Source of the DNA: Vicinamibacterales bacterium
GTDB lineage: Bacteria; Acidobacteriota; Vicinamibacteria; Vicinamibacterales; 2-12-FULL-66-21
Assembly: GCA_035699745.1 (NCBI GenBank)
Contig: DASSPH010000042.1
Span: forward strand, 1-64,000
Direction: 5' to 3'
DNA: 64,000 bases
Program-made: the position numbers and the translations under genes
Part shown: positions 14,670 through 18,002 of the stretch, one piece after another
How positions within the stretch are numbered: the stretch's first letter is position 1
Layout: each line of letters opens with the position of its first letter
Notes under the pieces: generated by a model
Database searches by the model: none
Told to the model about the DNA's origin: nothing
What the model saw: only the letters and a program-made list of their open reading frames with translations

Positions 14670-16034
14670 ATGAACGTGGTTCTGATCAGCACCTACGACC
14701 TCGGACGGCAGCCCTTCGGCCTGGCCTCGCCGGCGGCGTTCCTGCGCGGCGCCGGGCACGAGGTGCGGCCCGTCGACGTGACGCGGGAGAAGCTCCGCGA
14801 GGACGACATCCGGCAGGCCGGTGTGGTCGCGTTCTACCTGCCGATGCACACGGCGACCCGCCTCGCGCTGCCGGTGATGGATCGGGTGCGCGCGCTGAAT
14901 CCGTCGGCGCATCTCTGCGCCTACGGGCTGTACGCGCCGCTGAATGCCGACGTCCTGCGCGAGCACGGCGTACACACGATCCTCGGCCCCGAGTTCGAGC
15001 GTGCCCTGGTCGATCTCTGCTCCCCCGGCGGCTTTCGCGTTCAGCCGGACGATCCGCTCCCGCGGATCACGTTCGTCACACCCGATCGCTCCGATCTCCC
15101 GCCGCTCACACGCTATGCCTCGCTGCAGATTGGCGACGAGCGCCGCGTCGCCGGCTACACGGAAGCGACGCGGGGGTGCAAACACCGCTGCCGGCATTGC
15201 CCGATCGTGCCCGTGTACGACGGACGGTTCCGCGCGGTGGACGCCGGCGTGGTCCTCGCCGACGTCCGCGCGCAGGTCGCCGCCGGGGCGCAGCACATCA
15301 CGTTCGGCGACCCGGACTTCTTCAACGGCCCGACGCACGCGCTGCGCATCGTCGAGGCGCTGGCGCGCGAGTGTCCGGGTGTCAGCTACGACGTGACCAT
15401 CAAAGTCGAGCACCTGAAGAACCATGCCGCGGTGCTGCCGCGGCTCCGCGACACGGGCTGCGCGTTCGTGACCTGCGCGGTCGAGTCGTTCGACGACGAG
15501 GTGCTCGAGAAGCTCGAGAAAGGGCACACCCACGCCGATTTCGCCGCCGTGGTCGAGCACTGTCGCGCGATCGGCCTCACGCTGTCGCCGACGTTCGTCG
15601 CGTTCACGCCGTGGACGACGCTCGACGGCTACGCCGCGATGCTGCAGGAGATCGATCGGCTGCACCTGGTGCCGGCGGTCGCCCCGATCCAGTACGCCAT
15701 CCGGCTGCTGATTCCGCAGGGCTCGCGGATGCTGGAGCTGCCGGAGGTGCGTCGGGTGGTGACCGGCTTCAACCCCGCCTCGCTGGCGCATGGCTGGCGC
15801 CATCCCGATCCGCGCGTCGACGCGTTGCAGCAGGAGATAGAGCGGCTGGTCGGGTCGCGCCTGAACGCACCGCGGGACGAGATGTTCGGGCGGGCCTGGG
15901 ATCTCGCGCACGCCGCGGCGGCCTCGGTGCCCCCGGCGCGCGAACCGCTGGTGTCCCGCGCCGCGGTGCCCTACTTGAACGAGCCTTGGTACTGTTGAGC
16001 GGAGCCCAGCACAGAGCAGGTGGCTCTGATATAA
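14670..16034 (+). CDS. Radical SAM selenoprotein with C-terminal CUAEP tail (UGA at 15996 read as Sec)
   Basis: The start is ATG 14670 (MNVVLISTYDLGRQPFGLAS). A B12-binding-like domain (about 1-125) precedes a radical SAM core with the 4Fe-4S motif TRGCKHRCRHCPIVPVYDGR (C-x3-C-x2-C, about residues 170-178). A conventional reading stops after EPWYC at TGA 15996-15998, giving 442 residues. The codons after the TGA read A-E-P-S-T-E-Q-V-A-L-I and then TAA at 16032-16034. C-U-A-E-P is the tail signature of a known radical SAM family that ends in CUAEP (Sec) or CCAEP (Cys), so TGA is very probably selenocysteine and the protein has 454 residues. A hairpin at 16000-16028 fits a SECIS element. The substrate is unknown; an ATP-grasp gene follows. 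Confidence 0.85.
16000..16028 (+). promoter_or_regulatory. Candidate bacterial SECIS hairpin
   Basis: It begins 2 bases after the in-frame TGA at 15996-15998. CGGAGCC (16000-16006) pairs with GGCTCTG (16022-16028) through 7 pairs, one of them G-U. C16007 can pair with G16020 if U16021 is bulged. The loop is centred about 15 bases from the TGA, in the range of bacterial SECIS elements. In E. coli fdhF the bulged U is on the 5' side; here it would be on the 3' side, so the match is to position and size rather than to sequence. Confidence 0.6.
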
Positions 16035-16199
16035 CCAATTGCCGATGGCCGATTGCAGATTGCCGATCGAAAGCTGCCGATTGCAGAGTGCCGATCGACG
16101 GAGTGACGACTGCCGATTGGCCAATCGCCAATCCGTCGATCTTCAATCCCCCAATCTTCAATCCGTCGATCTGCCGTCTGCAATCGTCGATCGGCAATG
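16035..16199. repeat. Degenerate heptamer array with inverted halves
   Basis: The gap between the radical SAM and ATP-grasp genes is filled with degenerate 7-bp units. The left half uses CCGATTG / CAGATTG / CCGATCG types; the right half uses their complements (CAATCC, TTCAATC, GTCGATC). The 12-mer at 16059-16070 is repeated exactly in inverse orientation at 16187-16198, so the region could fold into a long imperfect hairpin. The right end runs into the ATG (16197-16199) of the ATP-grasp gene. Confidence 0.8.
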
Positions 16200-17483
16200 A
16201 CACGAGTTCTCCTCTTCTCTCACACGACCGGATACCAGCTGCGCGCGTTCGACGACGCGGCGGCGCGGCTCGGGATCGAACTGGTGTTTGCGACCGATCG
16301 TTGTCATCGGCTCGATGACCCGTGGCAGGACCGCGCAATTCCGGTGCGGTTCTACGACATCCCGCTGTCGCTGGATCGGATCTTCCGCCGCGCGCGGGAG
16401 TTTCCGGTCGGCGGCATTCTCGCCGTCGGCGACCGTCCCGTCGTCCTCGCCGCGCACGTTGCGCAGGCGCTGGGCATCCGGTGGCACTCCGTCGCCGGCG
16501 CCGAGGCGAGCACCGACAAGTGCCGGTCGAGGGTGCTGCTCGCGACCGCGGGGCTGCCCGCGCCCCGCTTCGCCATCCGCAACCTGCGCGCCGCGCTGAG
16601 AGACCTGCGACCCGGCCTCGGCGATCCGCGGCCGGACGTCAGCTTTCCCGTCGTCTTGAAGCCGGTGGGGCTCTCCGGCAGCCGCGGCGTCATTCGCGCG
16701 AACGACGACGAGGAGTACGCGGAGGCGTTCGACCGGATCAGGGCGCTGCTGGCGCGGCCGGACGTGCGCGCCGCGCGGACCGGCCTCGAAGACGAGATCC
16801 TGGTCGAGCAGTACATCGACGGCGACGAGTTCGCGCTCGAAGGCGTCCTGACCGACGGCGTCCTGCGCGTGTTTGCGCTGTTCGACAAGCCCGATCCGCT
16901 CGTCGGGCCGTTCTTCGAGGAAACGATCTACGTGACGCCGTCGCGCACCGCACCGGAGCTCCAGTCCCGCATCGCGAAGGCGGTGGAGGCGGCGGCCCAC
17001 GCGCTCGGCCTCGGACACGGCCCCGTTCACGCGGAGTGCCGTATGACACCACAGGGTGAGATTTACATACTCGAGGTGGCCGCACGTCCGATTGGCGGAC
17101 TCTGTTCGCGCGTGCTGACGTTCGCGTCCCCCCCGGTTTCGCTCGAGATGGTGCTGCTGCAGCACGCGATAGGGCAGTCGATCGATCGCTACACGCGTGA
17201 ACCGGACGCCGCGGCGGTGATGATGATTCCCATCCCGCGGCGGGGCATCTTCAAGCGGATGAACGGCGTCGAGGCCGCGTCGCGGGTGGCGGGCGTGAGC
17301 GAGATCCGCATCACCGCCAAGGAGGGACAGATGCTCGAACCGCTTCCGGAAGCAGGCAGTTATCTCGGCTTCCTCTTCGCGCGGGGCGGGCGCCCCGAAG
17401 ACGCGGAGCGTGCGGTTCGCGACGCGCACGCGCTGCTCGATCCCGAGATTGCGCCGGCGCTGTTGGCCGACGCGCGGGGGTGA
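16197..17483 (+). CDS. ATP-grasp domain ligase
   Basis: A 428-residue soluble protein. An N-terminal Rossmann-like pre-ATP-grasp part (about 1-105) opens with MTRVLLFSHTTGYQLRAFDD. The ATP-grasp core (about 110-320) shows FPVVLKPVGLSGSRGVIRAN, ILVEQYIDGDEFALEG, and the metal-binding GPVHAECRMTPQGEIYILEV then AARPIGG. Such enzymes join a carboxylate to an amine, thiol or hydroxyl by way of an acyl phosphate. The substrate cannot be told. It directly follows the CUAEP radical SAM gene on the same strand, so the two probably make or modify one small molecule or peptide. Its ATG lies at the right end of the heptamer array, and no Shine-Dalgarno sequence is visible. Confidence 0.87.
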   Translation: MTRVLLFSHTTGYQLRAFDDAAARLGIELVFATDRCHRLDDPWQDRAIPVRFYDIPLSLDRIFRRAREFPVGGILAVGDRPVVLAAHVAQALGIRWHSVAGAEASTDKCRSRVLLATAGLPAPRFAIRNLRAALRDLRPGLGDPRPDVSFPVVLKPVGLSGSRGVIRANDDEEYAEAFDRIRALLARPDVRAARTGLEDEILVEQYIDGDEFALEGVLTDGVLRVFALFDKPDPLVGPFFEETIYVTPSRTAPELQSRIAKAVEAAAHALGLGHGPVHAECRMTPQGEIYILEVAARPIGGLCSRVLTFASPPVSLEMVLLQHAIGQSIDRYTREPDAAAVMMIPIPRRGIFKRMNGVEAASRVAGVSEIRITAKEGQMLEPLPEAGSYLGFLFARGGRPEDAERAVRDAHALLDPEIAPALLADARG

Positions 17484-17518: not shown

Positions 17519-17800
17519 CTACTGTTTGCCTTGTTGTGGAACGTATCCGGGCGGGAGCGCCGCGCCTTCGCCGAAGAAGAAATCCTCCATGTGCTTGGCC
17601 ACGAGCTGCTGCGCCTCTTTCTGCCAGGGCATGAGGCGGTACTCGTTCAGGATCATCTTCATCCGCTCTTCCCACATTTTCCACGCGTCCGCGGAAATAT
17701 TCTCGTAGACGCGCTGACCGAGCTCGCCTGGCCAGGGCGGGGTGTCGAGTCCGGGAAGTTCACGCTGCAGTTTCTTGCACATCACGATGCGGGGCGCCAT
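17519..17800 (-). CDS. yggX: Fe(2+)-trafficking / oxidative damage protection protein YggX
   Basis: A 93-residue protein beginning MAPRIVMCKKLQRELPGLD; the ATG at 17800 gives the family's usual length, while ATG 17809 would add three residues (MGG). The single conserved cysteine in V-M-C-K-K, the PPWPGELGQRVYENIS segment and WKMWEERMKMILNEYRL then QKEAQQLVAKHMEDFFFGE are diagnostic. YggX protects iron-sulfur clusters against oxidative damage. It is convergent with the ATP-grasp gene (36 bp apart), so the iron-sulfur radical SAM enzyme and YggX are close, though on opposite strands and probably unrelated in transcription. Confidence 0.92.
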   Translation of the reverse strand: MAPRIVMCKKLQRELPGLDTPPWPGELGQRVYENISADAWKMWEERMKMILNEYRLMPWQKEAQQLVAKHMEDFFFGEGAALPPGYVPQQGKQ

Positions 17801-18002
17801 GCCGCCCATGGTACCCCATCCCGAACCTCATGTATTGCCTTACAGCCGCAGGTGTAGCGATTCGCTCCAGCGTTCAGTCGGCTCCGTACGGGTCGTCCGC
17901 TATCCCCGCGATTTGCTTCGACTTGCGGGAGGCGCAGCCCCTCCGCGCCGGCCTTCGGCTGGCACAGCCTTTGAACTACAGCCCGGCCGGAAGGTTTGTG
18001 TG

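What the first reader, a model, noticed from the sequence alone, without database searches (positions are those of the whole stretch)
15930..16034. Radical SAM gene ends in a UGA-encoded selenocysteine (CUAEP tail)
The reading frame ends ...NEPWYC followed by TGA (15996-15998). The next codons give A-E-P and eight more residues before TAA at 16032. The CUAEP/CCAEP tail is a known radical SAM family signature, so TGA is best read as Sec. Standard gene calling would end the protein one residue before its Sec and lose the tail. A hairpin begins 2 bases after the TGA. The tail probably provides a metal- or substrate-binding Cys-Sec pair. Frame, codons and hairpin are seen directly; family membership is from memory.
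Basis: partly seen in the sequence, partly recalled or inferred. Interest (0 to 1): 0.92.

Follow-up and report, generated by a model that had tools for sequence, protein, structure and literature searches.

The report
Radical SAM enzyme with selenocysteine tail
A bacterium reads a stop codon as selenocysteine to finish the tail of a radical enzyme; the enzyme family was already named, but its close pairing with an amino-acid-ligase-like gene, and relatives in which the selenocysteine sits one position earlier or twice, look new.

Summary
Frame 14670-16034 encodes a 454-residue radical SAM protein whose codon 443 is TGA (15996-15998), followed by AEPSTEQVALI and TAA. TGA is almost certainly selenocysteine. 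The protein passes the cut-off of NCBIfam NF040546 'CUAEP/CCAEP-tail radical SAM (seleno)protein' (623.5 bits against 500), so the family is known. The genome holds tRNA-Sec(UCA), SelA, SelB and SelD. A SECIS hairpin at 16012-16028 covaries in Sec-coding relatives (91.9% paired, 0 of 500 shuffles) and is at chance in Cys-coding ones (42.9%). Of 13 surveyed genomes without SelA, 12 carry the Cys form.

Beyond the finding: (1) the next gene (16197-17483) is an ATP-grasp protein of L-amino-acid-ligase type, present in 59 of 60 rSAM-positive against 8 of 336 other genomes of the phylum, and 55 of 58 against 12 of 338 in a second class where the genes are mostly unlinked; (2) one clade there has UU and UC tails. 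The nearest characterised relative is ArsL (C-As bond formation). I infer an unusual amino acid made on an atom held by Cys-Sec, then ligated; chemistry and product are untested.

The parts
14670..16034 (+). CUAEP-tail radical SAM selenoprotein, 454 aa with Sec443, stop TAA
   Evidence: NF040546 623.5 bits (cut-off 500); Pfam Radical_SAM 57.4 bits
15177..15200 (+). CX3CX2C motif (Cys170, Cys174, Cys177), expected ligands of the [4Fe-4S] cluster
   Evidence: invariant in the 36-row alignment; role from established knowledge of radical SAM enzymes
15996..15998 (+). in-frame TGA read as selenocysteine (Sec443), next to Cys442 at 15993-15995
   Evidence: Sec genes in the genome
15999..16031 (+). 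C-terminal tail AEPSTEQVALI after the Sec codon, AEP conserved
16012..16028 (+). SECIS hairpin: stem CAGAGC / GCUCUG with loop AGGUG, 13 nt after the UGA
   Evidence: covariation in 45 Sec-coding relatives, chance level in 10 Cys-coding ones, energies over 170 rows
16197..17483 (+). ATP-grasp protein of L-amino-acid-ligase type (428 aa), genomic partner of the rSAM
   Evidence: Pfam ATP-grasp_4, LAL_C2, ATPgrasp_N over their cut-offs; co-occurrence in two sets of 396 genomes
17519..17809 (-). Fe(2+)-trafficking protein (YggX family), neighbour in part of the family; a role in the pathway is not shown
   Evidence: Pfam Iron_traffic 115.8 bits; homologue in 24 of 61 phylum loci

Best explanation
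This is a genuine selenoprotein. The ribosome, with SelB and tRNA-Sec directed by the hairpin at 16012-16028, inserts selenocysteine at UGA 15996-15998 and reads on to TAA 16032, giving a radical SAM enzyme that ends ...EPWYC-U-AEP... (comparative evidence, no experiment). It belongs to the named family NF040546 (shown). It acts in one pathway with the ATP-grasp L-amino-acid-ligase-type enzyme encoded just downstream (strongly supported by co-occurrence in two bacterial groups, including where the genes lie far apart). The most likely chemistry, inferred from kinship with ArsL: the [4Fe-4S] cluster splits SAM, and a carbon fragment, probably 3-amino-3-carboxypropyl, is transferred to a soft atom held by the Cys442-Sec443 pair (arsenic, another metalloid or a chalcogen), giving an unusual amino acid that the ligase joins to a second amino acid or amine.
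For: Sec decoding: NF040546 above cut-off with and without the tail; tRNA-Sec(tca), SelB, SelA, SelD over cut-off; SECIS stem 91.9% paired in 45 Sec rows (44 distinct), 75 cells changed on both sides, covariation 0.637 against 0.231, each 0 of 500 shuffles, while 10 Cys rows give 42.9%, reached by 169 of 500 shuffles; hairpin energy medians -10.4 kcal/mol (136 CU rows) and -4.45 (28 CC rows), all 142 Sec rows against the CC rows p = 2e-12. SelA in 49 of 49 Sec-form genomes (48, the window's own) and 5 of 10 Cys-form genomes (Fisher p 5e-5); in a second set 16 of 17 Sec-form and 12 of 19 Cys-form. Partner: ligase in 59 of 60 rSAM-positive against 8 of 336 other genomes, and 55 of 58 against 12 of 338 in a second class; domains. 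Chemistry: second-best NCBIfam match is ArsL (259.8 bits; next family 48.9); the CC of the RCCLKC tail aligns with the CU pair; all three RCCLKC-tail plasmid loci viewed carry an ATP-grasp gene, two with an LAL_C2 match under its cut-off. ArsL is reported to form AST-OH by moving the 3-amino-3-carboxypropyl group of SAM to As(III) (PMC8552651, abstract and passages seen).
Against: No experiment shows Se in the protein or any reaction. Two of the five SECIS measures do not exceed shuffles (pairs with a double change 325 of 500; further pair types 69 of 500), and 4 of 28 CC rows also fold at -8 kcal/mol or better while UU and UC rows are weaker than CU (median -7.3). One Sec-form genome, G421 (1.3 Mb), has no SelA match. 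ArsL membership fails (259.8 bits against 450). Arsenic genes are nearly absent beside the CUAEP loci: ArsM-like matches at 1 of 61, 2 of 80 and 0 of 50 loci; no match to the ArsR, ArsN, aquaporin, transporter or GTP-binding queries, so arsenic may not be the substrate. Genomes are related, so the co-occurrence p values overstate independence; 16 of the 59 ligase-positive rSAM genomes of the phylum, the window's included, gave rows to the ligase profile (without these, 43 of 44). Ligase without rSAM: 20 of 674 genomes (3 of them with rSAM fragments under the cut-off); rSAM without ligase: 4 of 118. The plasmid record with the named arsL shows no ATP-grasp gene in the stretch viewed. The tail alignment spans a region missing in the RCCLKC proteins, so CC-to-CU correspondence is suggestive only.
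Confidence: 0.7

Rival explanations
1. The enzyme is a selenoprotein paired with the ligase, but its chemistry is not ArsL-like: it forms an ordinary 5'-deoxyadenosyl radical and the Cys-Sec tail is a redox relay or an auxiliary metal or cluster ligand.
For: The modelled fold is closest to AprD4 and to B12-type radical SAM enzymes such as OxsB and TsrM; arsenic genes are nearly missing nearby; an Nfu-type Fe-S carrier (22 of 61 loci; one member scanned) or a YggX-type gene (24 of 61) sits nearby in part of the family.
Against: The closest sequence relative by far is ArsL (259.8 bits, next family 48.9), and the three RCCLKC-tail loci viewed also carry an ATP-grasp gene.
Confidence: 0.35
2. The tail is itself the substrate or a covalent carrier: Cys or Sec is alkylated or bears the acceptor atom through each turnover.
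For: Conservation of the W-[FY]-C-U-A-E-P motif near the C-terminus and exchange of Cys and Sec at both positions.
Against: No direct evidence; Sec and Cys exchange also fits simple metal or redox binding.
Confidence: 0.1
3. TGA is a true stop and the enzyme ends at EPWYC; the AEP tail is decayed sequence.
For: Annotation that ends at the TGA, as in the Thermomicrobium roseum record.
Against: Motif kept in frame beyond the codon in 59 of 61 phylum loci, a covarying hairpin that is at chance level in Cys forms, Cys at the same codon in relatives, complete Sec machinery.
Confidence: 0.02

Closest known systems
NCBIfam NF040546 rSAM_CUAEP, CUAEP/CCAEP-tail radical SAM (seleno)protein
   Same: Whole-length match over the curated cut-off, CX3CX2C motif, CU-AEP tail with Sec.
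   Different: No difference seen in the window's own protein; some relatives found here have UU or UC tails, which the family name does not mention.
ArsL, arsinothricin biosynthesis radical SAM protein (NCBIfam NF040542, RCCLKC tail)
   Same: Second-best family match over most of the length, a C-terminal CC that aligns with CU, an ATP-grasp gene beside the three RCCLKC-tail genes viewed.
   Different: Below the ArsL cut-off; 28-32% identity to three RCCLKC proteins; no RCCLKC tail; almost no arsenic genes beside the CUAEP loci.
L-amino-acid ligases such as BacD (alanine-anticapsin ligase) and DdaF (dapdiamide A synthase)
   Same: The partner has ATPgrasp_N, ATP-grasp_4 and LAL_C2 domains over their cut-offs.
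   Different: Far below the BacD and DdaF equivalog cut-offs (58.9 against 850; 42.8 against 840); substrates unknown.
Other radical SAM selenoproteins listed in a 2026 review (TIGR04167; TrsS, NF045646; PMC13188914, passages)
   Same: Radical SAM family with Sec.
   Different: Other families; neither is among the families matched by the window's protein, and the review's text does not hold NF0405, rSAM or AEP.

Membership tests
NF040546 CUAEP/CCAEP-tail radical SAM (seleno)protein | score over the curated cut-off of 500 bits | tested here: met
   623.5 bits with the tail, 603.8 without
NF040546 CUAEP/CCAEP-tail radical SAM (seleno)protein | C-terminal C-[U/C]-A-E-P motif | tested here: met
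   CUAEP at residues 442-446
NF040546 CUAEP/CCAEP-tail radical SAM (seleno)protein | CX3CX2C radical SAM motif | tested here: met
   Cys170, 174, 177, invariant in 36 rows
bacterial selenoprotein | Sec machinery (selC, SelA, SelB, SelD) in the same genome | tested here: met
   over cut-off; tRNA-Sec 61.8 bits, where a Ser and a Leu tRNA also pass the cut-off, told apart by ARAGORN's anticodon tca
bacterial selenoprotein | SECIS hairpin just downstream of the UGA | tested here: met
   covariation in Sec rows, chance level in Cys rows; no Rfam family matched at gathering level
bacterial selenoprotein | Cys-containing homologues at the Sec position | tested here: met
   10 of 59 phylum loci with a tail, 22 of 80 named loci (7 of the 80 are the same loci as in the phylum set)
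bacterial selenoprotein | selenium found in the protein | not testable with these tools
   needs mass spectrometry or 75Se labelling
ArsL (NF040542) | score over the curated cut-off of 450 bits | tested here: not met
   259.8 bits
ArsL (NF040542) | RCCLKC C-terminal tail | tested here: not met
   tail is CUAEPSTEQVALI
ArsL (NF040542) | arsenic genes in the neighbourhood | tested here: not met
   ArsM-like matches in 3 of 191 loci (61 + 80 + 50, some genomes in two sets), ArsR and ArsN none
ArsL (NF040542) | transfer of 3-amino-3-carboxypropyl from SAM | not testable with these tools
   needs enzyme assay
L-amino-acid ligase (partner gene) | ATP-grasp_4 and LAL_C2 domains over Pfam cut-offs | tested here: met
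   120 and 59 bits against 27 and 29.4
L-amino-acid ligase (partner gene) | ligation of two amino acids | not testable with these tools
   needs enzyme assay
B12-binding radical SAM enzymes | Pfam B12-binding domain over its cut-off | tested here: not met
   19 bits against 32.1, although the modelled fold is nearest to such enzymes

The most novel reading that the evidence does not exclude
The CUAEP radical SAM enzyme and the ATP-grasp ligase form a widespread, undescribed two-enzyme pathway in which an ArsL-like enzyme uses a C-terminal Cys-Sec pair to hold a metalloid or chalcogen atom, makes a carbon bond to it from SAM, and the ligase turns the resulting amino acid into a dipeptide-like natural product. 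In one Anaerolineae-type lineage the selenocysteine has moved from the second to the first position of the pair through a double-Sec (UU) stage decoded by one SECIS.
Probability: 0.3. Interest if true: 0.85.

Novelty: new member of a known kind. Interest (0 to 1): 0.6.

Why it matters
The window's gene is a clean, testable case of a family that NCBI models name but whose name and accession are in no paper of the searched library. The tight pairing with a ligase, seen also where the genes are unlinked, gives a handle on its function: a small two-gene pathway that could be expressed and its product looked for. If the ArsL-like reading holds, it would add a selenium-dependent route to unusual element-carbon bonds. 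The UU and UC tails show that Cys and Sec can replace each other at both positions of an adjacent pair and suggest that a Sec residue can shift along a protein, which bears on how selenoproteins evolve. Gene callers that stop at the UGA truncate the protein just before its conserved tail.

Tried and rejected
A SECIS family in Rfam: RF00031 gave no match in the genome, nor in any of the 14 control genomes, so that answer is empty; the gathering scan of the window found nothing and the permissive scan of 15950-16100 gave four weak hits to unrelated families. My own SECIS model in the genome: only the window's site scored well (47.7 bits; next 19.0, E 0.12). Arsenic as an evident substrate: not supported by the neighbourhood. 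B12-dependence: domain below cut-off. Phage origin: no match in the phage collection. Distance of the Sec to the cluster in the model (pLDDT 93.1): not measured, because no coordinates were available to me. Literature: searches for CUAEP, NF040546, selenoprotein with radical SAM or PGAP terms, ArsL and arsinothricin with ligase terms, and tandem UGA listed no paper whose title or abstract start names this family; of these papers I opened passages of PMC13188914, PMC9312934, PMC8552651 and PMC12159101 only. The 2024 JACS ArsL paper is not held; I know it from the reference list of PMC12159101.

Rows dropped: four Sec rows (L093, L100, L101, L103) of 49 were left out of the SECIS alignment A2 as divergent. 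In the 53 CU rows of the named set with 36 bases, the fixed seven-pair register forms 7 pairs in 18, 6 in 12, 5 in 12, 4 in 7 and 3 in 4 (22 Cys rows: 6 in 2, 5 in 5, 4 in 1, 3 or fewer in 14), so part of the family uses a shifted stem; the energies do not depend on the register. L060, L106, L094 and L105 were left out of the ligase alignment A5 (16 of 20 rows used). SelA was checked in 36 of the 80 named-locus genomes. Tails were read in 50 loci, one each of 50 of the 58 matched genomes of the second class. The tree used 173 of 185 proteins after removal of near-copies. I recall, without a call, that bacterial SECIS loops usually carry a GU at about this distance from the UGA.

Full report
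WHAT WAS CLAIMED AND WHAT IS THERE. The coordinates and codons are right: the frame from ATG 14670 runs to TGA 15996-15998 and, read through, to TAA 16032-16034, giving 454 residues with Sec443 and the tail C-U-A-E-P-STEQVALI. The protein scores 623.5 bits against NCBIfam NF040546 'CUAEP/CCAEP-tail radical SAM (seleno)protein' (cut-off 500), 603.8 without the tail.

SELENOCYSTEINE MACHINERY. The assembly that holds the window (110 contigs, 6.3 Mb) has SelB (352 bits, cut-off 242), SelA (526.9 bits, cut-off 268), SelD (347 bits, cut-off 125) and a tRNA-Sec (61.8 bits, cut-off 47). Two other tRNAs also pass the Rfam tRNA-Sec cut-off there; ARAGORN calls them tRNA-Ser and tRNA-Leu, and calls the best one tRNA-SeC with anticodon tca. 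In the 14 control genomes, matches over the cut-off were found in 5 (tRNA-Sec), 2 (SelB), 1 (SelA) and 2 (SelD). SelD itself has an in-frame TGA in the motif CAGUASK.

SURVEY OF RELATIVES. In 396 genomes of the phylum, 60 have a match over the NF040546 cut-off. I read 61 loci (60 fetched plus the window): 49 have TGA at the position of Sec443, 10 have a Cys codon, and 2 show no tail, L069 (contig end) and L111. In 80 named loci from a collection of species genomes (the tool kept the best 80 of 561) the pair is CU in 55, CC in 22, UU in 2 and UC in 1; 7 of the 80 are the same loci as in the phylum set. Record titles include Acidobacteria, Anaerolineae and Chloroflexi, Gemmatimonadetes, Methylomirabilota and NC10, Latescibacterota, Verrucomicrobia and others.

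SECIS. Thirty-six bases from the UGA align without gaps in 45 Sec rows (four of the 49 left out as divergent). The stem at columns 16-22 with 28-34 is 91.9% paired, with changes on both sides in 75 cells and a covariation score of 0.637; 0 of 500 shuffles reach each of these, and sliding the partner by 1-3 columns lowers pairing to 37-57%. Two further measures do not stand out: pairs with a double change (5; 325 of 500 shuffles) and further pair types (14; 69 of 500). In the window the stem has six pairs, 16012-16017 with 16023-16028, loop AGGUG. In the 10 Cys rows the same columns pair at 42.9% (169 of 500 shuffles). In the named set, 30 of 53 CU rows form 6 or 7 of these pairs and 23 form 3 to 5 (Cys rows: 2 of 22 form 6), so the register is not the same everywhere. 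Register-free energies over 170 rows: median -10.4 kcal/mol in 136 CU rows (122 at -8 or better), -4.45 in 28 CC rows (4 at -8 or better), -7.3 in 3 UC and in 3 UU rows; all Sec rows against CC rows p = 2e-12.

SELA AND THE FORM OF THE TAIL. Of 60 genomes checked, 55 have SelA; the five without (G317, G088, G269, G367, G293) all carry the Cys form. With the window's own genome, SelA is in 49 of 49 Sec-form and 5 of 10 Cys-form genomes (Fisher p = 5e-5; relatedness not corrected; two genomes without a readable tail, both with SelA, not counted). In 36 of the 80 named-locus genomes, SelA is in 16 of 17 Sec-form and 12 of 19 Cys-form genomes; the Sec-form exception, G421, is a 1.3 Mb bin.

SEC ON THE MOVE. 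In the class of G396, the genome of the Anaerolineaceae-titled locus L140, 58 of 396 genomes match at E <= 1e-60, 56 over the cut-off. Tails read in 50 of these 58: CU 44, UC 4, UU 2, at least two of the loci lying in genomes already seen in the named set. The UU genomes G396 and G397 and the UC genome G398 have SelA. On a FastTree tree of 173 proteins and 3 RCCLKC-tail rows, with the tail cut off, the three UU and three UC rows form one clade (local support 100); the UC rows are a clade (99) that joins one of the UU rows at 84, under the program's 95 mark. CU to UU to UC is the simplest path on this tree, but UU and UC as sister groups are not excluded. The CC label needs 14 changes on the tree, 9 of them forced by well-supported branches. 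The hairpin is kept, if weaker and with a bulge, in UC tails, where the only UGA lies three bases further from it.

THE PARTNER. The gene at 16197-17483 is an ATP-grasp protein with ATP-grasp_4 (120 bits), LAL_C2 (59) and ATPgrasp_N (37.1), all over cut-off. A homologue lies in the fetched stretch in 42 of 61 phylum loci, upstream or downstream and in both orientations, in 54 of 80 named loci and in 6 of 50 loci of the second class. A profile of 16 of these proteins, all from rSAM-positive genomes of the phylum, was then searched in two sets of 396 genomes at E <= 1e-80, a limit that I chose. Phylum: 59 of 60 rSAM-positive genomes have it (43 of 44 without the 16 that gave rows) against 8 of 336 others, of which 3 hold rSAM fragments under the cut-off. 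Second class, with no row in the profile and rSAM-positive meaning E <= 1e-60: 55 of 58 against 12 of 338. Fisher p 3e-60 and 1e-51, without correction for relatedness. Of the 55 pairs in the second class, 44 lie on different contigs, 5 on one contig but more than 90 kb apart, and 6 close together (places), so inheritance as one gene block does not explain the pairing; the two enzymes very probably act in one pathway.

WHAT THE ENZYME MAY DO. The second-best NCBIfam match is ArsL (259.8 bits, cut-off 450; next family 48.9 bits; [quoted passage not shown] Aligned with three RCCLKC-tail proteins, identity is 28-32% and the aligner places the CC of RCCLKC on Cys442-Sec443. All three RCCLKC-tail plasmid loci viewed carry an ATP-grasp gene; the two compared are 24% and 29% identical to the window's over 266 and 219 columns; LAL_C2 is matched in two of the three, below its cut-off. 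The record with a named arsL has arsQ and arsM but no ATP-grasp gene in the stretch. Of the other genes of those clusters, only ArsM-like matches occur near CUAEP loci, at 1 of 61, 2 of 80 and 0 of 50, all at 25-28% identity. The AlphaFold2 model (pLDDT 93.1) is nearest to AprD4 and B12-type radical SAM enzymes, although the B12-binding domain score is under its cut-off. My reading: an ArsL-like enzyme making an unusual amino acid from SAM and an atom held by the Cys-Sec pair, followed by ligation. The genomic pairing is shown; the chemistry and the product are inference.

KNOWN OR NEW. The gene is a new member of a known, named family. No paper in the searched library holds 'CUAEP' or 'NF040546', and a 2026 review of prokaryotic selenoproteins does not hold 'rSAM', 'AEP' or 'NF0405' (text search of PMC13188914). 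The ligase pairing and the UU and UC tails did not show in the listings of my searches, which cover open-licence papers only and which I did not read beyond the passages named above.

Noticed in passing
L140, L142, L233 (UU) and L151, L239, L249, L271 (UC), C-terminal tails: Tandem UGA-UGA (double Sec) and shifted UGA-UGC/UGU tails in one Anaerolineae-type clade of the same radical SAM family (L249 was not among the tree's rows).
   Followed up: yes
L272, 9369-9371 (Thermomicrobium roseum WP_012643191.1): The public record's gene ends at the Sec UGA, so the annotated protein lacks Sec and the AEP tail.
   Followed up: yes
L049 (own genome, contig C71): SelD of the same genome has an in-frame TGA in a CAGUASK motif, so it is itself a probable selenoprotein.
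   Followed up: partly
window 16038-16172: Degenerate short tandem repeats (periods 7, 14 and 15, ATTGCCG-like) fill most of the gap between the radical SAM gene and the ligase gene.
   Followed up: no
phylum loci with the WFC tail, such as L054: A gene whose scanned member has NifU and Nfu_N domains lies near the radical SAM gene in 22 of 61 loci, 19 of them of the WFC type.
   Followed up: partly
window 17519-17809 and 24 of 61 phylum loci: A YggX-type Fe(2+)-trafficking gene follows the ligase in part of the family.
   Followed up: no
L126: A MAG record titled Bifidobacterium breve carries a CCAEP radical SAM gene 58% identical to the window's with the start of the ligase gene beside it; the title is probably wrong.
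   Followed up: no
L101 and L103: Divergent members with a U-S-E-P-L tail that ends right after the motif, with a TAG stop.
   Followed up: no
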